DNA of 64,000 nucleotides from Tomitella gaofuii (lineage in GTDB: Bacteria > Actinomycetota > Actinomycetes > Mycobacteriales > Mycobacteriaceae). A program made the position numbers and the translations under genes. Location: assembly GCF_014126825.1 (NCBI RefSeq), contig NZ_CP059900.1, positions 248,001-312,000 of the forward strand, read 5' to 3'. The notes beneath the pieces are model-generated. The model did not search any database. It was not told the origin of the DNA and worked only from the letters and a program-made list of their open reading frames with translations. Shown here piece by piece: positions 4,929 to 64,000 of the stretch; the stretch's first letter is position 1, and each line of letters begins with the position of its first letter.

Positions 4929-4951
4929 CGCACGTGGGGACCGGCGCCGGC

Positions 4952-5425
4952 TCACAGCCAGTGCGCCAGCCCCACCGCGAACAGTGCGAAGGTGAGCAGT
5001 CCGATGGCGCCGCGGAGCGCGGCCGCCGACCGGCCGCCGCGCGCGACGTGGCCGTCGAGCGCCCCGCCGCTCTCCTCGGCCCGGCGGCGCAGCCGAGTCA
5101 TGTTCCGGGCCTGCACGATCCCCCACGCCAAGGCCACCACGAGAGCGGCGGCGAGCACGGTGAGCGCGGTGCTCATGCCCGTCCACGGCGCCGTGCCCAG
5201 CAGCACCGCGCCGGCGATGAGGCCCACGAGCAGGTCGATCGTCGCGAAGATCCCGTAGGCGCGGCCGAACGCCCGGAAGAACGACACCCGCGCCATCGGC
5301 TCCAGTGTGGCGGAACTGGTGCGCGCGACGAACACCACCGTCACCATGCCCCCGATCCACAGGCATGCGGTGAGGATGAGGATGCCGGACAGGGTGCTTT
5401 CCGCGCCGGAGGACAGGCTGGTCAT
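4952..5425 (-). CDS. Small integral membrane protein, four predicted helices
   Basis: 157 residues. Hydrophobic segments lie at about 13-34, 57-78, 84-105 and 136-156. A basic stretch around residues 108-117 (ARNMTRLRRRAEE) probably faces the cytoplasm. I do not recognise the family with certainty; the layout is like the small four-helix DUF/CopD-like membrane proteins of actinobacteria. The ATG at 5425 has only a weak upstream GGA. The gene is convergent with the alcohol dehydrogenase and divergent from the lipoprotein at 5521, with about 95 bp between starts. No function can be given. Confidence 0.7.
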   Translation of the reverse strand: MTSLSSGAESTLSGILILTACLWIGGMVTVVFVARTSSATLEPMARVSFFRAFGRAYGIFATIDLLVGLIAGAVLLGTAPWTGMSTALTVLAAALVVALAWGIVQARNMTRLRRRAEESGGALDGHVARGGRSAAALRGAIGLLTFALFAVGLAHWL

Positions 5426-5520
5426 CGGATTCCGTTTCGCCGAGGGGGTGCGTCCGGTCTACCACCGGCCGGCCCGCGAGAGGCGCCCGGGCGGCCGCCG
5501 GGTCTGTTAGCGTCGGCGCC

Positions 5521-6096: not shown

Positions 6097-6127
6097 GCCC
6101 GGCCCGGCGTGGCGGGCCCGCAGCGCA

Positions 6128-7693
6128 TCATCCCGCCGGTGGTCCGATGCGGAGCATGCGCCCCACCGTTCCCTGCCAGTACACGCCGGGCCCGTCGCCG
6201 TCGCCGATGTTCGGTGCGACAGTCCCGGTGAGCTCCATCGGCTCGTCCACCGGCGCGGTGCCGACGAACGAGCGCACCACCTCGTCGCCGGTGTCCGCGT
6301 CGATGGCGGTGTAGAACACCGGACCGGTCTTCTGCGCGATACCGCTGGTGAGGACGTCTCCCAGCACGCCGGAGTCCGGCGCGTCGCCGTAGGACAGGCC
6401 GTGGATGAGCCTGTCGCCGGTGGTGGCCTTCGGCAGCGTTGCGGTGCGGGTGTTCGACGTCCACTGCCGCGTACAGCCGCTGCCGTCGGTGGCGATCGAC
6501 GTCATGCCGCCCCGGTACGGTGCCTGCGCGGGCATCGCCGGTCCGTCGACGGCCATCGGGAAGTACTGGAAGCCGTAGGTGTTCGCGATGATGAGCGACC
6601 ACTCGCCGCCGCCCGGGGATGCGAGCGCGATGGGGGAGTTCTCGGACTGGGCCGGGCCCTCGATGAGCCTGCCGTCTGGCGCGGCGGTCTCCGGGTGCAG
6701 GGTGGTCGCGAACGCGGGCATCGCGCAGCGCACGTCGCCGCTGGCACGGTCGAGGACGAACAGCGTCGACTGGTCTGCGGCGTCGAGGTAGGCGACGTAG
6801 TCGTCCTGGTTCGGCCCGAAGTACGTGGGCGTGGAGCCCGAGCCGTGGCTGAGCATCCCGGGGTGCCGGGCCGCGCCGGGATCGTAGGCCCGCCGCCACC
6901 GGATGTGCGGCTGACCGTCCTCACCCTGGTCCACCTCGTAGAGGGCGCGACTCGTCATCACCGAGGCGCCACCGGGCCGCACCGTGATGCCGTTGGACAC
7001 GCGCTCGCCCGGGGGCTGCCCCGCGTCGGCGGGCAGGTCGAGGATCCGCGCCGACGCGGGATCGCCGGGGACCACCGTGCCGACCACCGCGTTCACGGTG
7101 ACGAACCAGATGCGGCCGTCGACCCCCGGGGCGAGGCCCGTGACGTAGTCACCGTCGCGGATGAGCGGGCCCAGATCGGCGATCACCTCGTCGGTGAGGG
7201 TCCACGCACCGGAGGAGTCGCGGGCGTGCCCGACGGCGTGAAGGACGCCCGCGCCGTCCGCGACGACGACGCGGTCCTGATCGTCGAGGTAGCCGTACAC
7301 GCCGCCGAGCAATGCGCCCTTCGCCAACTGCATGCGGGCGAGGGCCGCGGCGGTGGCGGGGTCGAGCAGCACGACCATGGGCGGTGTGGTCTCGAGCGGG
7401 TCGGTGCCGACGTAGGCGGTGCACAGTGCCACGGGCATGCCGTCGCTCCCGACGAACACCGACGAACATGTGCCGCCGGGGATCGACGCACGCACACCGG
7501 TCTGCGTGCCGGGGCCGACGCCGGGGATCGTGTCGGTGGAGTAGATATCGCCGTGCACGGTGGCGGTTCCGAGGGGGCCGAGGCCGGGTGTTCCCGGCAC
7601 TGCCCCGGCGGGCGCGGCGACGGCGATCGCCGCAGCCAGCGCGCCCGCGCTCGCGATCGCCCCGCGGGTGACGGCTCCGGCGCGTCGTGTCAT
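6128..7693 (-). CDS. Secreted protein of unknown function, possible beta-propeller
   Basis: 521 residues from the ATG at 7693, which follows CAGGAG; an upstream in-frame ATG at 7708 lacks a good ribosome site. A clear signal peptide (MTRRAGAVTRGAI, then an Ala-rich core ending at AGAVPG, about residues 1-33) implies export. The mature part is rich in repeated motifs such as VVADGAGVLHAVG, LAPGVDGRIWFVTVN and GEWSLIIANTYG, which look like propeller blades that bind or report a ligand. No catalytic motif is evident. It ends 32 bp from the convergent lipoprotein gene. A beta-propeller fold is a guess from repeat pattern only. Confidence 0.7.
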   Translation of the reverse strand: MTRRAGAVTRGAIASAGALAAAIAVAAPAGAVPGTPGLGPLGTATVHGDIYSTDTIPGVGPGTQTGVRASIPGGTCSSVFVGSDGMPVALCTAYVGTDPLETTPPMVVLLDPATAAALARMQLAKGALLGGVYGYLDDQDRVVVADGAGVLHAVGHARDSSGAWTLTDEVIADLGPLIRDGDYVTGLAPGVDGRIWFVTVNAVVGTVVPGDPASARILDLPADAGQPPGERVSNGITVRPGGASVMTSRALYEVDQGEDGQPHIRWRRAYDPGAARHPGMLSHGSGSTPTYFGPNQDDYVAYLDAADQSTLFVLDRASGDVRCAMPAFATTLHPETAAPDGRLIEGPAQSENSPIALASPGGGEWSLIIANTYGFQYFPMAVDGPAMPAQAPYRGGMTSIATDGSGCTRQWTSNTRTATLPKATTGDRLIHGLSYGDAPDSGVLGDVLTSGIAQKTGPVFYTAIDADTGDEVVRSFVGTAPVDEPMELTGTVAPNIGDGDGPGVYWQGTVGRMLRIGPPAG

Positions 7694-7852
7694 CTGTGGC
7701 TCCTGCATCCGGGTCCCGGCGGCCGCGCACGCATGGATCGGGCACGGCCGCCCCTCCGGCGGTAGTCGGTGCAGTTCGTAACGACAATGGTCGTGTCAGA
7801 ATGTATCGACGAAACAATGCAAGTGCAACAGATCACAGGGGGTCGATGACCG

Positions 7853-8737
7853 ATGCCAGTCGAGAGGACGCCCGCCGAGCACCCCGGGACGACCCCGCTG
7901 ACAGGGGCGTCGTGGCGCACCGACCTGTTCGACATCCCCGGATGCCTGCGAACGATCGGGTTGGACGCCCCGGCCGGCGCAGAGCCGTCGATCGAGCTGC
8001 TCGCCGCGTTGCATGAATCGCACGTGCGCACATTGCCGTTCGCGAACACCGACGTTCTGCTGGACACGCACCCGGGGGTGGCGCCGGACGCCGTGCAGGA
8101 CCAGCTGGTGCGGCGCGGGCGTGGCGGCTACTGCTTCGAGCACGCGCAGATCTTCGCGGCCGCCGCCGAGCACCTGGGCTTCACCGTGCGCAGGGCGCTC
8201 GGTCGCGTGCATTCCCTCACGAACACGCGCACGCACATGAGCGTGCAGGTGCGGGCCGACGGCCGGTGGTGGCTCTGCGACCCGGGGTTCGGGTACAGCC
8301 TCATCCGCCCGCTGCCGCTGGAGGACGGCGCGACGCAGGATCTGGGCGGGCGGACCGCGCGGCTCGACCGCGCCGACGACGACGGCGCCGCCGTGTGGGT
8401 GCTGAGTCGTGACGGCGCCGTGGAGCACTGCACCGACGGGCTGCCGGTGAAGCCGGCGGATGTGCGCACCGGGCACTTCATCACCTCATGCGAGCCGGAC
8501 TCTCCGTTCGTCAACCACCTGATGGTCATGCGGCACATGCCGTACGGGCACGTGACGATCACCGAGGGTGCACGCACCGTGCGCTGTGCGGGCCGGCCCA
8601 CCGAGCACTCGGAGATCTCCGTCGCCGAGGTGGTGGACGGAGTGCGCGAACTGGGGTTGCGCCTGGCCGACGGGGAACGGGATCTGCTCGCCGCGAAGGT
8701 CGGGGGACTGCGGCGGGGCGGCGCAGGCTCTGCGTAG
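7853..8737 (+). CDS. nat: Arylamine N-acetyltransferase
   Basis: 294 residues, the usual NAT length. The Cys-His-Asp triad is visible: C94 in RGRGGYCFEHA, H128 in RTHMSVQV and D143 in CDPGFG. The 15-residue His-Asp gap matches known NATs. The enzyme transfers an acetyl or acyl group from CoA to arylamines and hydrazines. In mycobacteria and rhodococci, NAT is linked to sterol and propionyl-CoA metabolism and to mycolate formation. The ATG at 7853 follows AGGGGG by about ten bases. The gene appears monocistronic and is convergent with the TetR gene at 8915. The intervening 177 bp show no strong hairpin. Confidence 0.93.
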   Translation: MPVERTPAEHPGTTPLTGASWRTDLFDIPGCLRTIGLDAPAGAEPSIELLAALHESHVRTLPFANTDVLLDTHPGVAPDAVQDQLVRRGRGGYCFEHAQIFAAAAEHLGFTVRRALGRVHSLTNTRTHMSVQVRADGRWWLCDPGFGYSLIRPLPLEDGATQDLGGRTARLDRADDDGAAVWVLSRDGAVEHCTDGLPVKPADVRTGHFITSCEPDSPFVNHLMVMRHMPYGHVTITEGARTVRCAGRPTEHSEISVAEVVDGVRELGLRLADGERDLLAAKVGGLRRGGAGSA

Positions 8738-8914
8738 AGGCCGAGGGCCGTCACGCCTGTGCCCATGCTTCTGGCCGGCTGTGGAAGTAGCGCCGCGGGG
8801 CGATGTCACGAACGGTCGGCCCGCCGCGGAGGGGCGTGTCGGCGATCGGCCGCTGGGCCGTGCGTGCGCGTTGACGACCGATGCGTGTTCCGGTGAGGCA
8901 GTCGGGAACGAGCG

Positions 8915-9463
8915 CTACGCGGGCCAGGCGGCAGACGCGTAGCGGGCTGCGTCCAACAGGCGGGCGCGGCCGGCGCCGTCGCGGGCCAGGGCGGCCATCC
9001 CGGCCAGTACGGTGTCGACGAATGCGGCCACGCCGTCGGCTTCGGTGACCGACGCGAGTTCCCCCTCGGCGGCGGCCCGGCGCAGACGTTCGCGGATCAT
9101 CTCCCGTGTCTTGCCGCGTCGTTCGGCGAGGCGCGGTTCGCTCATGACGAGGCAGCCGGGGGGCTGGCCGGGGGCGGAGAAATGCTCGGCCGAGGTCCGC
9201 AGCAGGCGCTCGACCGCCTCGCGTGCCGTGGGGGCCGACAAGTCACTTTCCAGGCTCGCGTCCAGTTGCTCTGTGTAGAGTCCGCAGGCCTTGTCGAACA
9301 GCGCGACCTTGTCGCCGAAGGCCGCGTAGAGGCTGGGTGCGGCGATCTCCGCCTCTGCGCACAGCTGCGCGACGCTCACTCCGTCGAATCCGCGTTCCCA
9401 GAAGGCGCGCATCGCCATCCGGAGTACGGCGTCCTTGTCGAACGATCTGGGTCTGCCTGCCAT
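8915..9463 (-). CDS. TetR-family regulator
   Basis: 182 residues. The N-terminal DNA-binding domain spans about residues 9-55, with the helix-turn-helix GVSVAQLCAEAEIAAPSLYAAFGDK. The C-terminal part has the motif PPGCLVMSEPRLAERRGKTREMI, like the TetR_C subgroup that often controls oxidoreductases. No Shine-Dalgarno is seen before the ATG at 9463; the operator-like palindrome at 9470-9486 starts only seven bases upstream, so the transcript may be nearly leaderless. It is divergent from the enoyl-CoA hydratase at 9569, the most likely co-regulated gene. Confidence 0.9.
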   Translation of the reverse strand: MAGRPRSFDKDAVLRMAMRAFWERGFDGVSVAQLCAEAEIAAPSLYAAFGDKVALFDKACGLYTEQLDASLESDLSAPTAREAVERLLRTSAEHFSAPGQPPGCLVMSEPRLAERRGKTREMIRERLRRAAAEGELASVTEADGVAAFVDTVLAGMAALARDGAGRARLLDAARYASAAWPA

Positions 9464-9469
9464 GTCTCA

Positions 9470-9486
9470 TAGTGTATCGCACACTA
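9470..9486. promoter_or_regulatory. Palindromic operator of the TetR/enoyl-CoA hydratase pair
   Basis: A perfect inverted repeat TAGTGT-N5-ACACTA lies immediately upstream of the TetR start codon and about 85 bp from the divergent hydratase start. Position and symmetry fit a TetR autorepressor site. Confidence 0.6.
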
Positions 9487-9568
9487 AAGAACGTGCTATC
9501 GTGATTATGTAACAACGACTAAACAATGCGGCGGCAGTGCTGAGGCATCCGCGCGGAGGAGTGCAGCA

Positions 9569-10429
9569 ATGAGCTACGACGGCTACAAGTCCCTGGTGGT
9601 CCGCACGGAGGGTCGGATCGCCTGGGTGACCATCGACAACCCGCCGGTGAACACCGTCGACGCCACGCTGGCCGGCGATCTCCAGGCGTTCGCAGCCCGG
9701 ATGGCGGACGACGAGGACATCGCCGTGATCGTCTTCCAGTCGGCCAACCCGGAGTTCTTCTCCGCCCACGCGGATTTCGAGTGGTCCTTCGATCCGGGCA
9801 CCCTGGAGGCCCTGGCCGACCCTGACGCCGACGCGGACCTCAACCCGCTTCAGCAGCTCAACGAACGCCTGCGCACGTTGCCTCAGGTGACGATCGCGAA
9901 GCTGCGCGGCTACGCCCGCGCGGGAGGCGCCGAGCTGGCGATGTCCGCAGACATGCGATTCGCCGCCGCGGACCGGACCTGGATGTCCCAGCCGGAGTCC
10001 CTGATGGGCATCTTCCCCGGCGGGGGCGGCACGCAGTACCTCAACCGGCTGGTGGGCCGGGCCCGTGCACTGGAGATCGTCCTGGGCGCAGAATTGCTCG
10101 GCACCTCCGTCGCCGAGCGCTACGGGTGGATCAACCGCGCGGTGCCGGACGAGCACCTCGACGCGTTCGTCGATGCCCTCGCCCGCCGTATCGCCGGCCT
10201 TCCCCGGGGCGTGGCCGCCGCCGCGAAGGAGGCGCTGGACGCCGCCGAGGCGAGCGGACCCGTTCCGCGTCTTGCGGAAGAGGCCGCCGCCCACGCGAAG
10301 GTCTATCCCTCGCCGGACGACATCGTCCACCGACTTCGCGTGCTGATGGATCGCGGCGGGCAGACACGCGACGGCGAACTGGCATTGGAGCGTCTGCTCG
10401 AGTCCATCCCCTGGGCCCACCGCTCCTGA
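9569..10429 (+). CDS. Enoyl-CoA hydratase/isomerase (crotonase) family protein
   Basis: 286 residues, crotonase fold. Oxyanion-hole strands are seen at IVFQSANPEFFSAHADFEW (about residues 54-72) and RGYARAGGAELAMSADMRFA (about 113-132). The normally catalytic second Glu region reads MSQPESLMGIFPGGGGTQYL. It hydrates or isomerises an unsaturated acyl-CoA. The gene follows a clean GGAGGAG site and is divergent from a TetR regulator that probably controls it. The substrate is unknown. It could serve the benzoyl-CoA island to the right, but it has its own operator type. Confidence 0.88.
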   Translation: MSYDGYKSLVVRTEGRIAWVTIDNPPVNTVDATLAGDLQAFAARMADDEDIAVIVFQSANPEFFSAHADFEWSFDPGTLEALADPDADADLNPLQQLNERLRTLPQVTIAKLRGYARAGGAELAMSADMRFAAADRTWMSQPESLMGIFPGGGGTQYLNRLVGRARALEIVLGAELLGTSVAERYGWINRAVPDEHLDAFVDALARRIAGLPRGVAAAAKEALDAAEASGPVPRLAEEAAAHAKVYPSPDDIVHRLRVLMDRGGQTRDGELALERLLESIPWAHRS

Positions 10430-13832: not shown

Positions 13833-14858
13833 TTAAGCCGTCGCCGGCTGCGGCGCGGGCTGTTCGTCGGTCGAGTGCCCGGGGAAAAGCTGCGCGTCGG
13901 GGTCCAGGTGCACCGCGGCGTTGTTGACGGCCGTGGCGACCTCGCCGAACCCGACGGCGATGAGCCGCACCTTGCCCTCGTACTCGGTGATGTCGCCGCC
14001 GGCGAAGATGCCGGCGCGCGTCGTGCGCATGGCCGAGTCGACGACGATGTGCCGGTTGTCGCGCAGTTCGATGCCCCACTCGCGCAGTGGGCCGATGTTG
14101 GCGAGGAACCCCAGCGCGGCCACCACGTTCCCGCAGGGGACGACCTCTTCGTCGTCGGTGCCCTTGGACTTGACGTGGGCCTTGGCCAGCCGGTCGCCGC
14201 CCTCGAGGGACACCACCTCGGCGTCGGTGATCATCCGCACCGTCGACGCCTCCACCTGGGCGACGGTGGCGGCGTGGGCGCGGAACACCTTGCGGCGGTG
14301 CACCACCGTGACGGACCTGGCGTGCTCCTCGAGCATGAGCGCCCAGTCCAGCGCCGAGTCGCCGCCGCCGACGACCACCACGTCCGAGCCCGCATAGGGC
14401 AGCGGGTCGGGCACGAAGTATTCGAGGCCGCGGCCCAGATACTCCTCGCCGGCGGGGAGCTTGCGGGGCGTGAAGGTGCCGATGCCCGCGGTGAGCACGA
14501 TCGCGCCGCAGTGCACCAGGTCCCCGGTGGAGGTGGTGACGGTGAACCGGCGCGCGCTGTCCCCGTCCGCGACGTCGTGTTCGACCAGCTCCTGCGCCTC
14601 CTGGCCCAGCAGGTAGACAGGGTCGGCCTGCGCCGCCTGGGTGGCGAGGGCGGTGACCAGGTCGCGCCCCTTGACCTGCGGGTATCCGGCGATGTCGAAG
14701 ATCTGCTTCTCCGGGTACAGCGCGCTGACCTGCCCGCCCACCTCGGAGAGCGAGTCGATGACGCCGACTTTGAGGCCGCGCACGCCCGCGTAGTACACGC
14801 CGTACAGGCCCACGGGGCCTGCGCCGACGATGAGGATGTCGAGATCGTGTGCGGTCAT
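13833..14858 (-). CDS. Ferredoxin-NAD(P)+ reductase, thioredoxin-reductase-like type
   Basis: 341 residues. The N-terminal FAD motif is VGAGPVGLYGVYYAG (about 11-25). The central NADPH motif is VVVGGGDSALDWA (about 159-171), and the C-terminal FAD region is GIFAGGDITEYEGKVRLIAVGFGE. The CxxC redox pair of thioredoxin reductase is absent, as in the YumC-type ferredoxin reductases. The ATG at 14858 overlaps the ligase stop (ATGA). It should reduce the co-encoded ferredoxin with NAD(P)H to feed the benzoyl-CoA epoxidase BoxB. This is a split version of the BoxA function. Confidence 0.9.
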   Translation of the reverse strand: MTAHDLDILIVGAGPVGLYGVYYAGVRGLKVGVIDSLSEVGGQVSALYPEKQIFDIAGYPQVKGRDLVTALATQAAQADPVYLLGQEAQELVEHDVADGDSARRFTVTTSTGDLVHCGAIVLTAGIGTFTPRKLPAGEEYLGRGLEYFVPDPLPYAGSDVVVVGGGDSALDWALMLEEHARSVTVVHRRKVFRAHAATVAQVEASTVRMITDAEVVSLEGGDRLAKAHVKSKGTDDEEVVPCGNVVAALGFLANIGPLREWGIELRDNRHIVVDSAMRTTRAGIFAGGDITEYEGKVRLIAVGFGEVATAVNNAAVHLDPDAQLFPGHSTDEQPAPQPATA

Positions 14859-16453
14859 CGGGCCTCTCCTGTCATTCCGGCGGGTTCCGGCTGGGGGGCG
14901 GTGAGCGCGCCGGCGAGCTGCTGCTTGACGCGGAACCGCTGGAGTTTGCCGGTGGCGGTCTTGGGGAGTTCGTCGACGAAGCGCACGGCGCGGGGCGCCT
15001 TGAAGTGGGCGAGTCCGTCGCGGCACCAGTCGATGATCTCGTGTTCGGTGATGTCGTCGTGCGGGGTCTTCAGCACCACTGCGGCGACGGGTTTGACCAG
15101 TCCCGCCTCGTCCTCGCTGCCCACGACGGCCGCCTCCAGGACGGCCGGGTGCGCGAGGATCCGGGCCTCCACCTCGCCGGGCGTGACCCAGATGCCGCCG
15201 GCCTTGAGCAGGTCGTTGGACCGGCCGAGGCAGGTGAAGACGCCCTCCTCGTCGCGCATGTAGGTGTCGCCGGTGCGCATCCAATCGCCCAGGAACACCG
15301 AGCGTTGCGCGTCGGTGCGCCGCCAGTAGCCGACGGCCAGGCTGGCGCCGCGGATGAACAGCTCGCCCGGTTCGCCCGGCGGGCAGACGTGCCCGTCGGC
15401 GTCGCGCACCTCCACGTCCCAGCCGGGGACGGGCCGGCCCGTGGTGCCGTGCCGGATGTCGTCAGGCACGTTGGAAAGGAAGATGTGCAGCGCCTCGGTG
15501 GATCCGATGCCGTCGAGGATTTCGAAGCCGAACCGCGCCAGCACCTTCTCCTGCAGGGCCTTGGGCAGCGGTTCGCCCGCCGAGACGCCCAGGCGCACCG
15601 ACGCGAACGCGTCGTCCGGCACCCCGGAGTGGACCATCGCGTTGTAGAAGGTGGGAACGCCGAAGTACAGCGTGGGCCGCGCGGACAGGGCCCGCTCGGC
15701 GAAGACCTCGGGGTTGGGCCTCCGCGGCTCGAGGATCGTGGTGGCGCCGGCGGCCAGCGGGAAGAACACCGAGTTGCCGATGCCGTAGGCGAAGAAGATC
15801 TTCGCCACCGACAGGCACCGGTCCTCCGCGGTGATCCCCAGCGTCCGGCGCCCGTAGGTCTCGTAGACGTGGCGGATGTTGGCGTGCCGGTGCATCGCGG
15901 CCTTCGGCTTGCCGGTGGTGCCGGAGGTGTAGAGCCACAGCGCCCACGCGTCGTCGTCGGTGGGGGCCGGGTCCGGCATGGGGGCGGAGGGCGCGGAGGT
16001 GAGTCGGTCCCACCGGAGTACGTGCACCCGGTCCGGTACCTCGGCGGCGAAGTCGCCGGAGGTGATCAGGTGCTCCACCTCGGGCGATGCCGCGACCGCC
16101 GCGTTCACCGCGCCGGCGAACTCGGCGCTGCCCACGACGGCACGGGCGCCGGAGTCGGCGACGATCTCCGCCAGCTCGTGGCCCTCGTACATCGTGGAGA
16201 TCGGCACCGCCACCAGGCCGGCGTGGAAGGCGGCCAGGAGGGTGACGACGAACTCCACGTCGTCGACCATGACGAGCAGCACGCGGTCGTCGGTGTGCAG
16301 ACCCAGCCCGCGCAGGTTGGCGGCGGCGCGGGCCACGTCGTCGGACAGCTCGCCGTAGGTGCGCGTGCGCGTACCCTCCACGGCGGTCTTGGCCGCGAAC
16401 CCGTCGCGGACCTGACGGTGCACCAGAAAATCTGCTGCGTTGAAAGGGGCCAT
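14855..16453 (-). CDS. Benzoate-CoA ligase family protein
   Basis: 532 residues, ANL superfamily. The P-loop A3 motif is YTSGTTGKPKAAMHRH (about 174-189). The aromatic-binding region KIFFAYGIGNSVFFPL is characteristic of benzoate-CoA ligases. The GDTYMRDEEGVF and C-terminal KTATGKLQRF motifs carry the adenylation residues and the catalytic Lys. It converts benzoate (or a substituted benzoate), ATP and CoA to benzoyl-CoA, AMP and PPi, the entry step of the box pathway. The ATG at 16453 lies three bases after the boxC stop, so the two genes are surely co-transcribed. Confidence 0.93.
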   Translation of the reverse strand: MAPFNAADFLVHRQVRDGFAAKTAVEGTRTRTYGELSDDVARAAANLRGLGLHTDDRVLLVMVDDVEFVVTLLAAFHAGLVAVPISTMYEGHELAEIVADSGARAVVGSAEFAGAVNAAVAASPEVEHLITSGDFAAEVPDRVHVLRWDRLTSAPSAPMPDPAPTDDDAWALWLYTSGTTGKPKAAMHRHANIRHVYETYGRRTLGITAEDRCLSVAKIFFAYGIGNSVFFPLAAGATTILEPRRPNPEVFAERALSARPTLYFGVPTFYNAMVHSGVPDDAFASVRLGVSAGEPLPKALQEKVLARFGFEILDGIGSTEALHIFLSNVPDDIRHGTTGRPVPGWDVEVRDADGHVCPPGEPGELFIRGASLAVGYWRRTDAQRSVFLGDWMRTGDTYMRDEEGVFTCLGRSNDLLKAGGIWVTPGEVEARILAHPAVLEAAVVGSEDEAGLVKPVAAVVLKTPHDDITEHEIIDWCRDGLAHFKAPRAVRFVDELPKTATGKLQRFRVKQQLAGALTAPQPEPAGMTGEAR

Positions 16454-16456
16454 CGG

Positions 16457-18163
16457 CTACACCCGCTTCATGTCGTAGTCGGCGCGCTGCCCGGTGCCGA
16501 AGCGGCGCAGTGCGCCCTCGGGTCCGGAAGCGTTGGGGCGGATGAAGATCCAGTTCTGCCAGGCGGTGAGACGGCCGAAGATCTTGGTCTCCAGGGTCTC
16601 GGGGCCGACGAACCGGTGGTTGGCCTCCATCCCGGTGAGGGCGTCGGGCGAGAGCGACGCCCGCTCTTCGAGGACGATGCGGAGCTCGTCCTCGAAGTCG
16701 ATGTCGTCGAGGGCCATCGTGACCAGGCCGAGGCCGTCGGCGGCCGCGGCGTCCAGCGCGGTGTCCTTCTCCGCGGCGACGGCGTCCACCTGCTCGCCGT
16801 GGCCGTAGAACCGCGACTGCAGGCGGGTCAGCCCGTTGCCCATCGGGTACGGGCCGAAGTTCGAGTCGGTCAGCGTCACGCTCGCCGGCGTCGCGTCCGG
16901 GTCGATGTCCTCGTAGACGCCGTCGAGCATGTACTGGCGGTCCGAAGCCAGGGCGATCTCCGCGAGGAACCCGTCGAAGGCGCTGCCCGGCTCGATCACC
17001 GAGAACAGGCTGCGGCTCGTCACGTCGAGGCGCTTGAGCGTGCGTTTGAGGTACTGGTTGACCTCGTTGATGAACCAGTCCGCGGACAGTGCGCGCAGCT
17101 GCGCGTCGAAGGCGAGGGCCCGCTGGTGGTCGCCTCGCACGCGGAACACCCAGGTGCCGATCTCCTGCTCGTTGGTGCGCAGGCGCAGGATCGCGTCGTC
17201 CAGCTCGCGGGTCACGCGCAGCGGCCAGTACCCGGCGCCCTGTGCGAGCGCGCCGGCGGCGTCGGCGGGCGGCGCCTCGTCGGGGACGGTGATGACGATG
17301 TCGGCGCGGCGCCCGTCGCGGTCGAGGGCGACGGACACGCTGGAGTACTCGAGGGAGTCCGCGCCGACGGTCCGCTGCAGCGGGGTGAGGCGCACGCCCT
17401 GGGCGCCGCCGGGGCGCTGCGAGCCGGCGCCGGCGGCGAGGGCGCGTTCGCGGGCGTCGTCCATGAGCGCCGAGGCTTTGGCGAGCCCGTCGACGAGCCC
17501 CCAGTCCACCGCCGTCTGCCCGCGCACACCCTCCTGCCGGGTGGCGAAGATGTCGGCCCGGTCCTTGCGCACCTTGCGCTTGTCGACGACGCGGGTGAGG
17601 CCGCCGGTGCCGGGGAGCACGCCGAGCAGCGGCACCTCGGGCAGCGAGACGGCGGAGGTGCCGTCGTCGACGAGGAGGATCTGCTCGCACGCGGCGGCGA
17701 GCTCGTAGCCGCCGCCGGCGGACGTGCCGTTGACGGCCGCGATGTAGGTCTGACCGGAGTTCGCGGTGGCGTCCTCGATGCCGTTGCGGGTCTCGTTGGT
17801 GAACTTGCAGAAGTTCACCTTCCATGCGTGCGGCGAGGCGGCGAGCATCCGGATGTTGGCGCCGGCGCAGAACATGCGGTCCAGGCCGCCGGTGACGATC
17901 ACCGATGTGACCTCGGGGTGTTCGAAGCGCAGGCGCTGCACCGCGTCGTACAGCTCGATGTCCACGCCCAGGTCGTAGGAGTTCATCTTGAGCTCGTAGC
18001 CGGGGACGATGCCGCCGTCGGGGTCCACCGCGAGGGTGAGCGTGGCGACGGGGCCGTCGAACTCGAGTCTCCAGTGGCGGTAGGCGGACGGTTCGGTGTC
18101 GAAGTCGACCACCGGGGCGTGGCCGCCGGCGGTGGCGGGGGCGTCGTTGTCGATGACGGTCAT
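16457..18163 (-). CDS. boxC: Benzoyl-CoA-dihydrodiol lyase BoxC
   Basis: 568 residues, the usual BoxC size. Two crotonase-like halves are seen: an N-terminal one with MFCAGANIRMLAASPHAWKVNF and NGTSAGGGYELAAACEQI, and a divergent C-terminal one with FDGFLAEIALASDRQYML and LTDSNFGPYPMGNGLTRLQSRFYG. BoxC opens the ring of 2,3-epoxy-benzoyl-CoA hydrolytically, giving 3,4-dehydroadipyl-CoA semialdehyde and formate. The ATG at 18163 is preceded by GAGAGG; a 16-codon extension upstream lacks support. It is the first gene of the boxC - ligase - reductase - ferredoxin operon. The promoter (TTGACG-N16-TAGAGT) lies within the TCTACA/TGTAGA operator. Confidence 0.95.
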   Translation of the reverse strand: MTVIDNDAPATAGGHAPVVDFDTEPSAYRHWRLEFDGPVATLTLAVDPDGGIVPGYELKMNSYDLGVDIELYDAVQRLRFEHPEVTSVIVTGGLDRMFCAGANIRMLAASPHAWKVNFCKFTNETRNGIEDATANSGQTYIAAVNGTSAGGGYELAAACEQILLVDDGTSAVSLPEVPLLGVLPGTGGLTRVVDKRKVRKDRADIFATRQEGVRGQTAVDWGLVDGLAKASALMDDARERALAAGAGSQRPGGAQGVRLTPLQRTVGADSLEYSSVSVALDRDGRRADIVITVPDEAPPADAAGALAQGAGYWPLRVTRELDDAILRLRTNEQEIGTWVFRVRGDHQRALAFDAQLRALSADWFINEVNQYLKRTLKRLDVTSRSLFSVIEPGSAFDGFLAEIALASDRQYMLDGVYEDIDPDATPASVTLTDSNFGPYPMGNGLTRLQSRFYGHGEQVDAVAAEKDTALDAAAADGLGLVTMALDDIDFEDELRIVLEERASLSPDALTGMEANHRFVGPETLETKIFGRLTAWQNWIFIRPNASGPEGALRRFGTGQRADYDMKRV

Positions 18164-54190: not shown

Positions 54191-55318
54191 TCAGGCCTTG
54201 TCGCCCAGCACCACGAGGTCCTCCACCGGCCACGACAAGTTCACCGCGGCGCCGGGAACGACGCCGTCGGGCGCGTGCGGCACCGGCGTGCGGGCGATGA
54301 TGTGCCGCCCGTACGCGTCCAGGATCTGCACCTGCCGGCAGTTACCGAAGTACACGCTGTCTTCCACGGTGCCGGTGATGAAGTCGTGGTGCGACGGCAC
54401 CGGGATCTCGCGGGCGGTCACTGAGATCCGCTCGGGCCGCAGCATCACCCGGGCCGGTCCGTGGCCTTGCCCGTCAGTGTCGGCCACGCGGAAACCGCCG
54501 CTGATCGGGTCGTGGAAGCCGTCGGGCCCCAGCGTCCCCTCGAAGATGTTCGACGCGCCGATGAACTCCGCGGTGAACTGCGAGTTGGGCTTGCGGTAGA
54601 GCTCCTCGGGGGTGCCCACCTGCACGATCTTGCCGCCGCGCAGCAGCGCGATGCGGTCGGACATCGCCAGCGCCTCGTCCTGGTCGTGGGTGACGAAGAT
54701 GAACGTGATGCCCAGTTCGCGGTGCAGCCGCCGGATCTCCAACTGCAACTGTTCGCGCAGCAGTTTGTCGAGCGCGCTCAGCGGCTCGTCCATGAGCAGC
54801 ACCGACGGCTGGAACACGACGGCACGGGCGAATGCGACGCGCTGGCGCTGCCCGCCTGAGAGCTCGTCGGGCCGTCGCTTGCCCAGGTGGCCCAGCTCCA
54901 CCATCTCCAGTGCGTCGGCCACCGCCTTGCGGGTCTCGGCCTTGCCGCGCCGCTGGCGGCGCAGTGGGAATGCGACGTTGTCCGCGACGCTCATGTGCGG
55001 AAACAGAGAGTAATTCTGGAAGACGACGCCGAAGCCGCGCTTGTGCGCCGGCACTTTGTTCAGCGGCCGCCCGTCCACCTCGATCGTGCCGGAGGTGGCG
55101 CCGGTGAACCCGGCGATCACATTGAGCAGAGTCGACTTGCCCGAGCCGCTCGAGCCCAGCAGCGTCATGAACTCGCCGCCGCGGATCTCCAGGTCCAATC
55201 CGTCGAGAACAGTGTTGGACCCGTAGGACTTGCCGACGCCGCGGATCGAGATGGCGGCGCCCGGCCGGCGGTCGGACGTGGACGGCGCGGGGGACGGGGT
55301 CGAAACGGTGGTGCTCAC
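54191..55318 (-). CDS. PotA-like ABC importer ATP-binding protein
   Basis: 375 residues. Walker A is GSSGSGKST (about 55-63), the Q-loop lies in VVFQNYSLFPH, the signature is LSGGQRQR, Walker B is VLLMDEPLSALD and the switch His is in FVTHDQDEA. The C-terminal TOBE domain (RVMLRPERISVTA, then TVEDSVYFGNCRQVQI) is like PotA/CysA/MalK-type importers. The GTG at 55318 overlaps the preceding permease stop (GTGA). It is the last gene of the binding protein - permease - permease - ATPase operon. It powers uptake of a polyamine-like or amino-acid-like solute. Confidence 0.93.
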   Translation of the reverse strand: MSTTVSTPSPAPSTSDRRPGAAISIRGVGKSYGSNTVLDGLDLEIRGGEFMTLLGSSGSGKSTLLNVIAGFTGATSGTIEVDGRPLNKVPAHKRGFGVVFQNYSLFPHMSVADNVAFPLRRQRRGKAETRKAVADALEMVELGHLGKRRPDELSGGQRQRVAFARAVVFQPSVLLMDEPLSALDKLLREQLQLEIRRLHRELGITFIFVTHDQDEALAMSDRIALLRGGKIVQVGTPEELYRKPNSQFTAEFIGASNIFEGTLGPDGFHDPISGGFRVADTDGQGHGPARVMLRPERISVTAREIPVPSHHDFITGTVEDSVYFGNCRQVQILDAYGRHIIARTPVPHAPDGVVPGAAVNLSWPVEDLVVLGDKA

Positions 55319-56151
55319 GGTTGGACTCCAATCGCCGCCGGAACACGGCGGTCAAGGTATTTGCGCACGGCCTTGCGGGAGAGCGAGGTCAGGCCGTACA
55401 GGACGAAGGATGCGACGATGACGAACAGCGTCAGGCTCGCGATGGCGGCGACGGTGGGCTCCACCTGCACACGGATGCCGGACCAGATCTGCACCGGCAG
55501 CGTCCGCATCATGGGGCCGGACAGGAAGATCGCGCTGACCACCTCGTCCCAGGAGGTGATGAAGGCGAACAGGGCTCCGGCCAGGACGCTGGGCGCGATG
55601 TTGGGCAGGGTCACGCGGAAGAACGTCGACACCGGGCCGGCGCCCAGGCTGTGGGCGGCCAGCTCCAGGTCGCGGTCGTAGCCGGCGAGCCCGGCGGCCA
55701 CGTTGATGGTCACGTACGGAACGGCAAGCGCGGTGTGCACCAGGATGAATCCCAGCGGTGTCTCCGTCAGTCCGATGCGCAGGAACACGATGTACACCGC
55801 GAGCCCCACGATGACGTACGGCACGATGATGGGCGCCAGCAGCACCGCGGTGACGGCGCCCCGGAGCGGATACCGCCCGCGCACGAGGCCCATCGCTGCC
55901 AGCGTGCCCAGGACGACCGCGCAGATGGTGGCGAACACGGCCACCTCAAGGCTGTTGAGGGCGGATTCGATCCAGACGGGGTCGTCGATGAGCTGGTGGT
56001 ACCAGCGCGTGGAGAACTCCTTCGGCGGGAACTTCAGGAACGCGCTCTTGGCGAACGACATCGGGACGATGATCAGCACCGGGAACAGCAGGTACAGGAC
56101 GGTGAGTGCGGCCAGCAGCGACAGGCCGGCGCGGGTGAGGATGCGTGTCAT
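55315..56151 (-). CDS. PotC-like ABC transporter permease
   Basis: 278 residues, six helices, BPD_transp_1 fold. The EAA loop is LELAAHSLGAGPVSTFFRVTLPNIAPSVLAGALFAFITSWDE (about 160-201), which docks to the ATPase. The start MTRILTRAGLSLLAALTVLYLLFPVLIIVPMSF is typical of PotC/YdcV-type subunits. The ATG overlaps the PotB-like stop (ATGA), so translation is coupled. Confidence 0.92.
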   Translation of the reverse strand: MTRILTRAGLSLLAALTVLYLLFPVLIIVPMSFAKSAFLKFPPKEFSTRWYHQLIDDPVWIESALNSLEVAVFATICAVVLGTLAAMGLVRGRYPLRGAVTAVLLAPIIVPYVIVGLAVYIVFLRIGLTETPLGFILVHTALAVPYVTINVAAGLAGYDRDLELAAHSLGAGPVSTFFRVTLPNIAPSVLAGALFAFITSWDEVVSAIFLSGPMMRTLPVQIWSGIRVQVEPTVAAIASLTLFVIVASFVLYGLTSLSRKAVRKYLDRRVPAAIGVQP

Positions 56152-57068
56152 GATGCCTGCCCCAGGATGTACTTCTTCATGTCGACGAACCGCCCGGCGA
56201 TGGCCAGGAGGACGAACGTGCTCACGAGTAGGAGCACGCCGAGTGCGGCGGCGAAGCCGAACTGCAGCACGGAGGACACCTGCTGCACGATGAGCTCGCC
56301 GATCATCGTGTTACTGGGTCCGCCGAGCAACGCCGGGGTGATGTAATAACCCAGCGCCTGGATGAACACCAGCACGATGCCGGCGAACAGCCCGGGGAGG
56401 GTGAGCGGTGCGTACACCTTGATGAACGCGAGCGACGGGCGTGCGCCCAGGCTCTCCGCTGCCAGCAGGAGGCGCCGGTCGATCCCGCGCATCGTCGCGT
56501 ACAGCGGCAGCACCAGGAACGGCAGGGTGATCTGCACCATGCCGAACAGCACTCCCGGCATATAGCGCAGCAGCGGCAGCGGGCCGTCGATCACCCCGGC
56601 CGACTCGAGCGCGGTGTTGATGACGCCGGTGTCGCGCAGCACGATCACCAGCGCGAAACTGCGGATGAGCAGACTGGTCCAGAACGGCACCAGCACGCCC
56701 ACCAGCATGACCGCCCGCCAGAACGGCGTGGCCAGCGTCATGAGATACGCATAGGGGAAACCGATGAGCACGGTGAGTGCGGTGGTCGACAGCGCGATGA
56801 CGAAGGTGTTGCGCAGCACCTTCAGGTACAGCGAGTTCTCCCAGATGGCGCGGTAGTTCTCCAGCCCGACTGTCGGATCGGTGAAACTTTTCGCGAGCAT
56901 CACCACGAGCGGCAGCAGGAACACGAGGGTGAGGAACACGAGCACGGGGAGCAGCAGCATGCCCCAGCGGTCGACGGCGAACCGACGCGGCCAGGTGCGC
57001 GGCCGTGCGGGGGCTTCGTCGTCTGTGCGGCCGCGTCCCAGGTCCGGGCTCTCGATGACGGCGGTCAT
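56148..57068 (-). CDS. PotB-like ABC transporter permease
   Basis: 306 residues from the ATG at 57068, which overlaps the binding-protein stop by four bases; an ATG 12 bases upstream is also possible. It has six helices. The EAA loop is LLLAAESLGARPSLAFIKVYAPLTLPGLFAGIVLVFIQALGYY. The polar first 30 residues (TDDEAPARPRTWPRR) are cytoplasmic. It pairs with the PotC-like subunit to form the membrane channel. Confidence 0.92.
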   Translation of the reverse strand: MTAVIESPDLGRGRTDDEAPARPRTWPRRFAVDRWGMLLLPVLVFLTLVFLLPLVVMLAKSFTDPTVGLENYRAIWENSLYLKVLRNTFVIALSTTALTVLIGFPYAYLMTLATPFWRAVMLVGVLVPFWTSLLIRSFALVIVLRDTGVINTALESAGVIDGPLPLLRYMPGVLFGMVQITLPFLVLPLYATMRGIDRRLLLAAESLGARPSLAFIKVYAPLTLPGLFAGIVLVFIQALGYYITPALLGGPSNTMIGELIVQQVSSVLQFGFAAALGVLLLVSTFVLLAIAGRFVDMKKYILGQAS

Positions 57069-58120
57069 GACAGGGTCCACTCATTCAGTCGTTCGGAGAC
57101 CTCGGCGTAGTGCTCGGCCCAGTACTTGTAGTCGATGACCACTGAGGACTTGTCGAGGTTGGGCGGGTAGGTGGACAGCTCGCGCGCGAGCTCCGGCTCG
57201 ACGAGGTCCAGGGCGTGCGGGTTGACAGGTGAGAACTGGCTTTCCTCGGCGTCGCGCGCCTGGCCTTCGGTGTCGCCGAGGAAATGGGTCATCCACCGCA
57301 TCGCGGTGTCGGTGTTGGGATAGCCGCGGGGAATGACGATCTGGTCGTAGGAGACCATGTTCTGTCCCCACTCGTTGGCCACCGGTTCGCCGTCCATCGC
57401 GGCCTGGGCGATGCGGCCGTTCCATGCCATGACCAGGGGCGCCTCGCCGCTCGCGACGAGCTGCGTCTGCTCGTCGCCGGTGTTGTAGAACACGATGCTG
57501 TCCTTGATCGTGTCGAGTTTGCGGAACGCGCGGTCGATGTCGAGCGGATAGAGGTCCTCGGGGGCGACGCCGTCGGCGAGCAGGGCCGCCTCGAAAATGC
57601 CGCCGGTCGCATAGTTCCAGAACCCGCGTTTTCCGGGGAAGCGCGCGGTGTCGAAGAATTCGGCCCAGGTCGTGGGGTGACCGTGGGGGAATGCGTCGGT
57701 GTTGTACGCGATGTTGAAGGCGTACAGCAGGTTCGGGACCGCGCATTCCGAGACGTAGCGGGAATCGATGCCGGCGGATCGCGCGGCGTCGAATATCTCC
57801 GGGGATAGTGGGGTGATGAGGCCGGAATCGCAGGCGTTCTCCGCGAAGTTCGGCTCCACCTCCACCACGCCCCACGACACATTGCCGGATTCCACCTGCG
57901 CACGCAGCTTGGCGTAGTCGGTGGGCGAGTCCTGGAGGATCTTGATCCCGTTCTGCTCGCCCCAGGGGCGCACGTAGCTGGCGAGGTGCACGCGCTGTGA
58001 GGCGCCGCCCCACATCGTCACCTCGAGCGTGTCCGCGGGGTCGACGCTGCTGCATGCAGTGAGGGCCGCGAGGGCGACGAGCCCTGCCGCCGCCCCCGCT
58101 CTTCGTCTTGGGTGGGCCAC
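57065..58120 (-). CDS. PotD-like solute-binding lipoprotein of the ABC importer
   Basis: About 351 residues from the GTG at 58120, placed five bases after AGGAG; a GTG six bases upstream directly abuts the ribosome site. The signal peptide ends in the lipobox ALTAC (Cys at about residue 23), so it is anchored on the outer face of the membrane. The fold is bacterial solute-binding family 1 (LEVTMWGGASQRVHLASYVRPW, AFNIAYNTDAFPHGHPTTWAEFFD, FPGKRGFWNYATGGIFEAALLADG), close to YdcS/PotD polyamine-type binders. It leads the ABC operon. Operator site 4 lies 13 bp upstream of the start codon, placing the importer under the same TetR. Confidence 0.92.
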   Translation of the reverse strand: MAHPRRRAGAAAGLVALAALTACSSVDPADTLEVTMWGGASQRVHLASYVRPWGEQNGIKILQDSPTDYAKLRAQVESGNVSWGVVEVEPNFAENACDSGLITPLSPEIFDAARSAGIDSRYVSECAVPNLLYAFNIAYNTDAFPHGHPTTWAEFFDTARFPGKRGFWNYATGGIFEAALLADGVAPEDLYPLDIDRAFRKLDTIKDSIVFYNTGDEQTQLVASGEAPLVMAWNGRIAQAAMDGEPVANEWGQNMVSYDQIVIPRGYPNTDTAMRWMTHFLGDTEGQARDAEESQFSPVNPHALDLVEPELARELSTYPPNLDKSSVVIDYKYWAEHYAEVSERLNEWTLS

Positions 58121-60413: not shown

Positions 60414-60546
60414 ATCGATCCAGTACACCACGGATGCGGGGCGGCTGCCATCGTCGACGGCGCAGGATCGTGGAATCGGCTTCCGCGTAGAGCCCGCCGC
60501 TATACGCTGAGCGTCAACCGGGAATTCAATGATGCGAGGGGCGGCG

Positions 60547-61332
60547 ATGACCATGGTCCGGATCGCGCGATCGGCCGCAGTGTTCGTGGCCGCAGGCGCG
60601 CTGCTGTGCGCCGGCGCGGGAACGGCCGCCGCCGACAGCTCCGCCGCCACGTCGTCCAGCGGGTCTTCGGGCAGCGCGGGGTCGTCGGGCAGCGCGGGGT
60701 CGTCGGGCAGCGCGGGGTCGTCGCTGGACCTGTCACGGCTCGAGGATCTGGGCGTGCAGGTGGGCGTGGACACCGGGTCGCTCGGCGACTGGGACGTCAC
60801 CGGGTCCCTGGGCATCGAGACCTCCGCGCCGGGACTGCGCACGGAGATCGACGACGCCGGGCGCATGCGTGTGTGGGTCACCCGGCCGCAGTCCGCGCCG
60901 CTGCTGTCGACGTGCACCCCGGTCCTCGTCGACGCCCGCCACATTCCGGAGCTGTTGGACAGCCTCGATGACCCGTCCGCGATCCTCGGCGGCGGACTGC
61001 CGGGGGTCACGCTGTTCGCCCCGCCGATCCCGTTCCCGCCGTCCCAGGCGCGCGACTACTGGCAGACTCGCGCCGCCGTCGGGCCGGGCGTGTACGTCCT
61101 GGCGGGGGTCTGCCTGCCGCAGGGCGCCACCCACATCGCGGCACTGGTCATGACGGTTCCCGGCAGCGGCTGGGGCAGCGTGGCGGAGACCGCCGGATTC
61201 GGCAGCGAGGCCGGTTCGATGCTGATCCGCGAGCAGCTGGGCTCCGTGACCGACTCGGCCGGCAGCGGCTCCGGGAGCAACAGCGGTTCCGGCAGCAACG
61301 GATCCGGCAGCGGCAGCGGTTCGGCGAGCTGA
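60547..61332 (+). CDS. Secreted protein with Gly/Ser repeat linkers
   Basis: 261 residues from the ATG at 60547, the one preceded by GAGGGG. The signal peptide runs to about residue 30 (AGAGTAAAD). A first low-complexity segment (SSGSAG repeated, about 37-58) and a C-terminal (G/S)n tail (about 235-261) flank a folded domain with two cysteines (LLSTCTPVLVD and LAGVCLPQG) that could form a disulphide. No enzyme motif is seen. It could be a cell-surface protein with flexible ends, common in mycolata. It is not part of the neighbouring Wadjet genes; it ends 16 bp from convergent jetD. Confidence 0.75.
   Translation: MTMVRIARSAAVFVAAGALLCAGAGTAAADSSAATSSSGSSGSAGSSGSAGSSGSAGSSLDLSRLEDLGVQVGVDTGSLGDWDVTGSLGIETSAPGLRTEIDDAGRMRVWVTRPQSAPLLSTCTPVLVDARHIPELLDSLDDPSAILGGGLPGVTLFAPPIPFPPSQARDYWQTRAAVGPGVYVLAGVCLPQGATHIAALVMTVPGSGWGSVAETAGFGSEAGSMLIREQLGSVTDSAGSGSGSNSGSGSNGSGSGSGSAS
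60669..60722 (+). repeat. Three perfect tandem 18-bp repeats
   Basis: The unit GGGCAGCGCGGGGTCGTC occurs three times in a row and encodes the GSAGSS linker. In-frame copy-number change is possible. Confidence 0.85.
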
Positions 61333-61347
61333 CCGCGGTGCGGCGCC

Positions 61348-62529
61348 TCAACCGAGGTGCCAGTGCTCCCGTAACCGCTGCATCACCCAGGGCCACGGTA
61401 TGCGCTCCTGCTCCAAGCGCAGGCCGCCGCCGCGCACCAGCTCGAAGGCGGCGGTCTCGCCGCCTGTGAGCCGGTCGAGGCCGTCCCGGGCGGCGGGGGA
61501 CGGCTCGTGGACGGCCAGGCCGGACCAGCGCGTCAGAGTGTCCGCGTCCATGAGGAGGCTGCGCACGGCGGGCAGGTGGGCGCGCAGCCGGTCGAGGATC
61601 GCGAACCCGTGCGTGTCCAGGTCGCCCCAGTACCAGGTTTCGGCTTCGCGCATCCACGGCAGGGCGGCGAGCTCGGGCACGGCGTAGCCGCCGCCATGCA
61701 CCGCGACCGTGTCCGCCAGCGGAGGGAGAGCGTAGAGCCCTTCCTTGTTCTCCAGCATGAGCACGCGGCCGGGGTGCAGGGGCAGCGCTGCGAGCTCGTC
61801 GAGCGAGGCGGCGAAGATCCGTGGGGCGCCCGGCAGCAGCGCGGGGTGGCACACCGCGATCCCGCATTCCCGGGGAACGGTGCGCACCCCGAGCCCGACA
61901 GCGGCGCCCTCCGCGCCGTATCCGTCAGGGCCGCCGTCGTCGGCCATCCCCCGCAGCAGCTCCTCCAGCAGCCCCCGATGCCCGGTGACCCACTTCGTGT
62001 CGACCCCGGGAATCGGCAGCTGCCGGATGTACAGACCTGACGACGGATTCTCGCGCAGCCACCGCAACACCGCGGTCAGCGCGTCGAAGTCCTTCTCCGC
62101 CAGTGACGACCAGCGGGAGGCGGTGCGGCCGAGGGTGGCCGGCAATGCGGGGGCTCCTGCCGTGACGGCGGCGAGCGCCTCGCGGCGTCGCACGATGGTC
62201 CGCCACTCGCGTGCGGCCCCGGCGGCGTCCGCCACCTGCTCCGCGCCCGTGAGGGTGAGCCGCACGGGCACGGTCTGGGTGCCGTAGCTGCGCCAGCGCC
62301 GCTCCTCCCAGTCGACGGTGCCGGGCCCGCGCCGCGATCGCCACGCGCGCACCCAGGCGACGGCGGCATCCGGGTCGGCGGCCACCCGTCGTTCCGTCGG
62401 CGGGTGCAGGGCGATCGTCACCGGATCGTCGGCGGCGAGCGTGGGCGATGCGATCCAGCGACTCCGCCGATTCCGGTAGGAGGCCGCGGCTTTCGCGGCG
62501 ACGGCGCCCGGGGCTACGGGTTCGGCCAT
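61348..62529 (-). CDS. jetD: Wadjet system protein JetD (TOPRIM nuclease)
   Basis: 393 residues. The N-terminal DUF3322-type region (WRSRRGPGTVDWEERRWRSYGTQTVPVRLTLTG) and the C-terminal TOPRIM-like DUF2220 domain are both present. The latter has the acidic motifs LMLENKEGLYALPP (about 256-269) and WYWGDLDTHGFAILDRL (about 294-310), which carry the nuclease metal ligands. JetD cleaves circular plasmid DNA after loop extrusion by JetABC. The ATG shares its A with the jetC stop (TGATG), so translation is coupled. It is the last gene of the jet operon; the promoter is outside the window. Confidence 0.93.
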   Translation of the reverse strand: MAEPVAPGAVAAKAAASYRNRRSRWIASPTLAADDPVTIALHPPTERRVAADPDAAVAWVRAWRSRRGPGTVDWEERRWRSYGTQTVPVRLTLTGAEQVADAAGAAREWRTIVRRREALAAVTAGAPALPATLGRTASRWSSLAEKDFDALTAVLRWLRENPSSGLYIRQLPIPGVDTKWVTGHRGLLEELLRGMADDGGPDGYGAEGAAVGLGVRTVPRECGIAVCHPALLPGAPRIFAASLDELAALPLHPGRVLMLENKEGLYALPPLADTVAVHGGGYAVPELAALPWMREAETWYWGDLDTHGFAILDRLRAHLPAVRSLLMDADTLTRWSGLAVHEPSPAARDGLDRLTGGETAAFELVRGGGLRLEQERIPWPWVMQRLREHWHLG

Positions 62530-64000
62530 CAGGGCGCGTCCGAGGTTTCGATGAGCAGGTGGGACAGTTCGGTGCGGTTGCGGTCGCGGATGGCGACGGT
62601 GACGACGCCGCCGATGTAGTCGTCGAGCGTCTGCAGCAGTTTGAGCGGCGTGGCCAGCACCATGTGGAATCCGAACTGGTCGAAGACGTCGAGCGCGCGC
62701 CGCGTGTAGGCCGGGTCGGCGCGGTCGAAGGCCTCGTCGAGCACCACGGTGGCGTACCGCGGCAGGTCCGCGCCGTCCTCGGCGAGCTGGTATCGCAAAG
62801 CCGCTGCGAGGCAGAAGAACACGAGCTTCTGCGCCTGTCCTCCTGAGAGGCCCGCGCTCGAGTCGTGGTAGTTGGCCTCCCGCCCCTCGGGATCCAGCTC
62901 CACGCCGATGAAGCCGACGTGCATGCGGGTGTCGAGAACGTGGCGCTGCCAGCGCTGATCGGCCGGGTCGCCGGAGTCGAGCCGCTCGAGCAGCGCGGCC
63001 ATCGCGGCGAAACGGTTCTCCGCGGCCGCGCGGTCCTCGTCTTCGAAGGCGCCGCTGGCGATGCGGTGGAGGTCGGCGAGGAACTCGGCGGCGACGGCGG
63101 GGCGGCGGTCCTTGACGTCGATCCGCAACGTGCGGTCGGTGTCGAACGGGGAGCGGCTCAGCGACCGGTTGACGGGTTCGATGCGGGCGCGGATCTCACT
63201 GGGCGCCTTGCGGATCAGGTTTGCGAGTTCCCCGATGTTGCGGTGCGACTGCTCGCGCAGCATGTCGAAGAACGCGTCCTCGTACTCCGGCAGCCCCTCG
63301 CCGCGCAGTTGCGCGAGGACGGCGAGCGCGTCGCCGACGTAGTCGGCATCCGCGCGCAGGTCGGCCCGGCGCTCCTCCCAGGCGCCCAGGTACTCGTGGA
63401 GCACGGCGACGATCCGCTGCCCCGCGTCCATCGCCTGCTGCTGCGCCCGGCGCAGGCCGGCGTCGATCTGCTGGCCCACCCGGGCGAGGGTGCGGTCGAT
63501 GTTGTCGACCGTCACCCGGCGCACCGCCTCGTCGAAACGCCGGCGGATGCGCGCGTCGACCCGCCCGGGGACGGGCGCGGCGGCGGCATCGGCCGCCTCG
63601 GCTTCGGTGATCTTGTCGCGGACCTCGGCGATCCGGCCCTCGTGCGCCGTGCGCGCGGCCTCGGCGGTGGACCGGGCCGTGGTCGCTGCCTCGTTCACCG
63701 ATTCGGCGCGGGCGAGCTCGGCGGTGAGCGCGGAGTACTCCGAATCGGCTGTGGTGAGCGTGTGGATCCGGTCGGTGAGCTGGTCGCGATGCGCGCGGGC
63801 CCCGGCGGCGTCGATCTCCTCCCACCCGACGTCCAGGACGGTGCGGGCGGCCGACTCCCGTTCGCGCAGGCGCGCGTCGTCGGCGTCGATGACGGACAAC
63901 GACTGCTCGAGCCGCGCCAGTTCCCGCCCTGCCTCGTCGATGCGCCGCCGCAGGTCGTTGAGCTTGGCCTCGTTGTCGAAGCCCAGCACCCACCGGCTGC
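62529..64000 (-). CDS. jetC: Wadjet system protein JetC (SMC-like ATPase), C-terminal part
   Basis: About 490 codons are open to the right edge with no start needed. The first visible residues (RWVLGFDNEAKL) match the middle of JetC. A coiled-coil region (about the first 200 visible residues, ARERESAARTVLD to RAQQQAMDAGQRIV) leads to the C-terminal ATPase half: ABC signature SAGLSGGQAQKLVFF and Walker B YATVVLDEAFDRAD. JetC is the SMC-like motor of the MukBEF-like complex that senses small circular DNA. The N-terminal Walker A part and jetA/jetB must lie to the right. Confidence 0.92.
   Translation of the reverse strand, partial: SRWVLGFDNEAKLNDLRRRIDEAGRELARLEQSLSVIDADDARLRERESAARTVLDVGWEEIDAAGARAHRDQLTDRIHTLTTADSEYSALTAELARAESVNEAATTARSTAEAARTAHEGRIAEVRDKITEAEAADAAAAPVPGRVDARIRRRFDEAVRRVTVDNIDRTLARVGQQIDAGLRRAQQQAMDAGQRIVAVLHEYLGAWEERRADLRADADYVGDALAVLAQLRGEGLPEYEDAFFDMLREQSHRNIGELANLIRKAPSEIRARIEPVNRSLSRSPFDTDRTLRIDVKDRRPAVAAEFLADLHRIASGAFEDEDRAAAENRFAAMAALLERLDSGDPADQRWQRHVLDTRMHVGFIGVELDPEGREANYHDSSAGLSGGQAQKLVFFCLAAALRYQLAEDGADLPRYATVVLDEAFDRADPAYTRRALDVFDQFGFHMVLATPLKLLQTLDDYIGGVVTVAIRDRNRTELSHLLIETSDAP

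What the first reader, a model, noticed from the sequence alone, without database searches (positions are those of the whole stretch)
61348..64000. Wadjet plasmid-defence operon at the right edge
jetD and the 3' part of jetC are clear and translationally coupled (TGATG). Neighbouring accessory genes to the right may include jetA/jetB and other defence systems. Genes to the left (secreted protein, MerR pair, methyltransferase) show no defence features.
Basis: partly seen in the sequence, partly recalled or inferred. Interest (0 to 1): 0.5.

Follow-up and report, generated by a model that had tools for sequence, protein, structure and literature searches.

The report
Complete type I Wadjet operon
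The window ends inside an intact four-gene Wadjet operon, a well-known bacterial system that cuts small circular plasmids; it sits among ordinary genes and looks like a normal member of its family.

Summary
jetD (61348-62529, minus strand) and the 3' part of jetC (62529 to the edge) are real and overlap in TGATG. The host genome (one 4.35 Mb contig) supplies the rest: jetC is 1134 aa, then jetB (243 aa) and jetA (487 aa from the likely start), with open frames and tight spacing. The best PADLOC match of each is a type I Jet profile. JetD's best solved match is MksG, with the residues reported for the C. glutamicum protein kept; JetC keeps its ATPase motifs. The guess of neighbouring defence systems is not supported: of 17 nearby proteins scanned, one gave a PADLOC match, and it is a MerR regulator. 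Beyond jetA lie an Emb-type arabinosyltransferase and selenocysteine genes. Two same-genus genomes carry both flanks with 49 and 70 bases in place of about 6.9 kb that holds the operon; JetD occurs in 9 of 81 genomes searched. Verdict: an ordinary new member of a known kind, presumably active against plasmids; activity was not tested.

The parts
61348..62529 (-). jetD (mksG), Toprim-type nuclease subunit, 393 aa
62529..64000 (-). jetC (mksB), SMC-like ATPase, 3' part; the whole gene runs to window-equivalent 65933 (L006:4530-7934, 1134 aa). jetB (L006:7931-8662) and jetA (L006:8669 to about 10132, at most 10333) follow beyond the edge on the same strand
61321..61341 (.). left end of the presence/absence segment: similarity to the jet-less genomes stops here (L006:3322 for G004, 3342 for G003) and resumes beyond the window at L006:10259 and 10252 (window-equivalent 68258 and 68251)
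60529..61332 (+). left flanking gene, 267 aa, signal-peptide-like start and serine/glycine-rich tail (read by eye), not part of the system
   Evidence: (no Pfam match)

Best explanation
This is a complete chromosomal type I Wadjet (JetABCD, called MksFEBG in corynebacteria) operon. By what is established for the family, JetABC is an SMC complex proposed to extrude DNA loops; on a small closed circle it completes extrusion, the two motors collide, and the Toprim nuclease JetD is activated and cuts the plasmid. Shown here: four open genes, their family membership, conserved catalytic motifs, and presence/absence within the genus. Inferred: the mechanism and that it is active in this host; nothing was assayed.
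For: Four genes in the order jetA-jetB-jetC-jetD with a 6-base gap (jetA/jetB), a 4-base overlap (jetB/jetC) and a 1-base overlap (jetC/jetD). Best PADLOC matches JetA1 4.8e-195, JetB1 2.5e-87, JetC1 0 and JetD1 3.4e-120. Best solved matches by sequence: JetC 8as8 9.6e-72, JetD 8b7f 'MksG' 2.4e-45, JetA 8q72 2.3e-21, JetB 8dk1 3e-8. JetD E260, Y282, D303, E373 and E375 have the same spacing as MksG E236, Y258, D279, E349 and E351 (passages of PMC10123090), and E260 aligns with the mutated residue of the chain named JetD(E248A). JetC keeps Walker A GPSGSGKS at 60, SGGQ at 1030 and VVLDEAF at 1063. DUF3375 (JetA) has one match in the genome.
Against: No expression or activity data. The IFDR motif near the JetB N-terminus, reported to contact JetD (passage of PMC10586767), is not found in this JetB with the pattern [IVL]F[DE]R; I did not test whether working actinobacterial systems have it. 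The jetA start is a judgement.
Confidence: 0.95

Rival explanations
1. The operon encodes a MukBEF-like chromosome organiser with JetD as an accessory, rather than a plasmid defence system.
For: JetABC belongs to the MukBEF-like SMC complexes (family descriptions; passage).
Against: JetD with DUF3322 and JetD_C is present and its catalytic residues are kept. JetD was not found at E<=1e-10 in 72 of 81 genomes, and two same-genus genomes have both flanks without the operon, which does not fit an essential chromosome role. In C. glutamicum deletion of mksG, mksB or mksF affects plasmids (passage of PMC10123090).
Confidence: 0.03
2. The operon is intact in sequence but no longer active in this host.
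For: A remnant occurs in the same genus: in the 19.9 kb around it G002 has JetD and a JetC match of residues 983-1129 only, no JetA or JetB at E 1e-4, and no DUF3375 in the genome.
Against: All four frames are open with gene-like G+C by codon position and the catalytic motifs are kept.
Confidence: 0.1

Closest known systems
MksBEFG of Corynebacterium glutamicum (type I Wadjet)
   Same: Same four subunits and gene order (mksFEBG = jetABCD; passage of PMC10123090). The chain named MksG (8b7f) is the best solved match to JetD; that it is the C. glutamicum protein is inferred from the paper. [quoted passage not shown]
   Different: Different chromosomal place: next to adhA in C. glutamicum; here between a small secreted-type protein and an Emb-type arabinosyltransferase.
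Solved type I JetABC(D) complexes (E. [quoted passage not shown] which PDB entry belongs to which strain was not printed by the calls)
   Same: JetC, JetA, JetB and JetD each match chains of these entries by sequence.
   Different: JetD is more distant from these chains (9.8e-20, 5.9e-18) than from MksG (2.4e-45); no IFDR-like string in this JetB.

Membership tests
Wadjet type I | JetA (DUF3375) present and open | tested here: met
   PF11855 1.2e-141, profile positions 1-473 of 474; JetA1 profile 4.8e-195
Wadjet type I | JetB (DUF4194, MukE-like) present and open | tested here: met
   PF13835 9.4e-43, profile positions 1-165 of 165; JetB1 2.5e-87
Wadjet type I | JetC SMC-like ATPase with Walker A, signature and Walker B | tested here: met
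Wadjet type I | JetD with DUF3322 and JetD C-terminal (Toprim-type) domain, metal-binding residues kept | tested here: met
   residue roles from passages of PMC10123090
Wadjet type I | four genes in one operon, order A-B-C-D | tested here: met
   order and spacing; co-transcription not tested
Wadjet type I | type I rather than type II or III profiles best | tested here: met
   best hit of each protein is a Jet*1 profile; best type II hit to JetC 1.8e-8, best type III hit to JetD 1.3e-5
Wadjet type I | IFDR-like motif in JetB N-terminus (reported contact with JetD) | tested here: inconclusive
   pattern [IVL]F[DE]R not found; whether actinobacterial members have the motif was not tested
Wadjet type I | restricts small circular plasmids | not testable with these tools
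   needs transformation assays
Defence island | other defence genes adjacent | tested here: not met
   17 nearby proteins scanned, 1 PADLOC match, on a MerR regulator; not every nearby gene was scanned

The most novel reading that the evidence does not exclude
The jetABCD operon moves alone as a clean unit of about 6.9 kb without integrase, transposase or flanking repeats, being gained or lost by exchange of the flanks among species of the genus, so that a plasmid barrier can be acquired or dropped in one step.
Probability: 0.3. Interest if true: 0.25.

Novelty: new member of a known kind. Interest (0 to 1): 0.12.

Why it matters
It predicts that this actinobacterium resists small circular plasmids, which would matter for its genetic manipulation, and it gives occupied and empty versions of one site within a genus. 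It adds nothing to the known mechanism.

Tried and rejected
Defence-island reading: not supported by PADLOC scans of 17 nearby non-Jet proteins. These are a selection: the ABC-transporter genes at window 54191-57080 and the reading frame after selA, among others, were not scanned.

A real break at the edge: rejected, the genome continues with open genes. A second Wadjet in the genome: DUF3375 has one match. SbcC_Walker_B has two matches over its cut-off, JetC and one at 2318230, which I did not identify, and one below it.

Transposon-like flanking repeats: between L006:3301-3360 and 10201-10300 the longest exact direct match is 8 bases, no evidence for a duplication. Foreign composition: the segment is 72.8% G+C against 71.2% for the window and 74.7% for the stretch to the right, and 25 of 88 windows of that size deviate as much or more in tetranucleotides, so foreign origin is not shown.

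Plasmid-borne close relatives: JetC matches 12 plasmid records, all below 60% identity (10 listed). Phage records were not searched. The genome-contig scan with JetC, which finds close relatives only, gave 5 loci, of which L043 has the same length and match positions as the G001 contig. Of papers I saw one search listing of 19 and passages of two; none was read in full.

Full report
What was checked. The finding names jetD and the 3' part of jetC at the right edge of the window. Frames on the minus strand at 61348-62529 (393 aa) and from 62529 to the edge (489 aa in the window) are there. PADLOC and Pfam identify them as JetD and JetC, best by type I profiles. The junction reads TGATG.

Beyond the edge. 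The window is G000:C1:248001-312000 of a 4,353,844-base single-contig genome. L006 is G000:C1:306000-324000; its first 6001 bases equal the last 6001 of the window, so window position = L006 position + 57999. There jetC is 4530-7934 (1134 aa), jetB 7931-8662 (243 aa) and jetA 8669-10333 at most (554 aa), all on the minus strand. The best JetA profile match begins at residue 69. The GTG at residue 68 (L006:10132), with GGAAGGGGAT upstream, is my choice of start; it gives 487 aa. Similarity to jet-less genomes begins at 10252 and 10259, inside the longest possible frame, which also speaks for a later start.

Is it complete? JetA, JetB and JetD match their Pfam domains and all four match type I PADLOC profiles over most of their length. 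All four match chains of solved Jet complexes. For JetD the best solved match is a chain named MksG. Passages of PMC10123090, on C. glutamicum MksG, name E236 and D279 as Mg-binding and Y258, E349 and E351 as putative catalytic residues. In this JetD E260, Y282, D303, E373 and E375 have the same spacing and align with that chain; which chain residue is E236 is inferred from the spacing. JetC has Walker A, SGGQ and Walker B. Against: no IFDR-like string in JetB, a motif reported at the JetB N-terminus (passage of PMC10586767).

Surroundings. Right of jetA: an Emb-type arabinosyltransferase (L006:10845-14300, +), an AIRS-family protein that I take for SelD (14353-15381, -), tRNA-Sec (15456-15551, +) and SelA (15578-16915, +). 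Left: the secreted-type protein without Pfam match, an LCM-type methyltransferase and a MerR regulator. Seven non-Jet proteins were scanned with PADLOC and ten. Of the 17, one matched (mad1, E=3.1e-9, on the MerR regulator, over its HTH part).

Occurrence. JetD is found at E<=1e-10 in 9 of 81 genomes, the own genome included, and in 3 of 5 of the genus (own, G001, G002). In stretches taken around the other 8, tblastn at 1e-4 found JetA, B, C and D in 3 (G001, G007, G052). JetB was not matched in G031 and G069 and JetA not in G075; frames of fitting size and place lie there in G031 and G075, none of the right strand in the filtered list for G069. G029 gave only the JetD C-terminal part, and G002 only JetD and JetC residues 983-1129. 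DUF3375 is in 1 of the 4 other genomes of the genus (G001). G001's operon (JetC 63%, JetD 56-60% identity) lies beside a Fic-domain and a FAD-binding gene, a different neighbourhood as far as its 16 kb contig shows. G001's version of the present site was not located.

Empty site. In G003 similarity to the own genome runs to L006:3342, just past the end of the secreted-type gene, and resumes at 10252, with 49 bases between in G003. In G004 it stops at 3322, just before that gene's stop, and resumes at 10259, with 70 bases between. The own genome has 6909 and 6936 bases there, holding the whole jet operon. tblastn of the four Jet proteins at E<=1 gave four matches in those two loci, the best at E=0.33, that is, chance. 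JetD and DUF3375 were not found elsewhere in G003 or G004. The short intergenic pieces of the three genomes do not align well, so the exact breakpoints are not known to the base. Gain in this lineage or loss in the others is not decided. No flanking repeat over 8 bases was seen and composition is not unusual.

Mechanism. From passages of the review PMC10586767: JetABC is proposed to extrude DNA loops; [quoted passage not shown] linear and very large DNA escape. This is taken over by homology and was not tested here.

Novelty. Patchy occurrence of MksG within families and probable spread between lineages are already stated for the family (passage of PMC10123090). The additions here are that this copy is complete, that its scanned neighbours are not defence genes, and the empty sites. 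It is an ordinary new member of a known kind.

Noticed in passing
L006:14353-16915 and L007:3599-6700 (G000:C1:320352-322914 and 327599-330700): Selenocysteine genes near the operon (SelD-like protein, tRNA-Sec, SelA) and a molybdopterin oxidoreductase gene whose upstream part does not seem to stay in one frame even with TGA read as U (judged by eye); decay, sequencing error or a misplaced boundary are all possible.
   Followed up: partly
G002, L022:10620-12190: Apparent Wadjet remnant in the same genus: JetD with only JetC residues 983-1129, JetA and JetB not matched nearby. A RES-domain protein (L022:9775-10593) lies next to it.
   Followed up: partly
G001, L021:1392-2606: A Fic-domain protein lies directly upstream of jetA of the G001 Wadjet operon, on the same strand.
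   Followed up: no
L006:16296-16376: ARAGORN reports a tRNA-Pro (ggg) inside the selA reading frame, probably a false positive.
   Followed up: no
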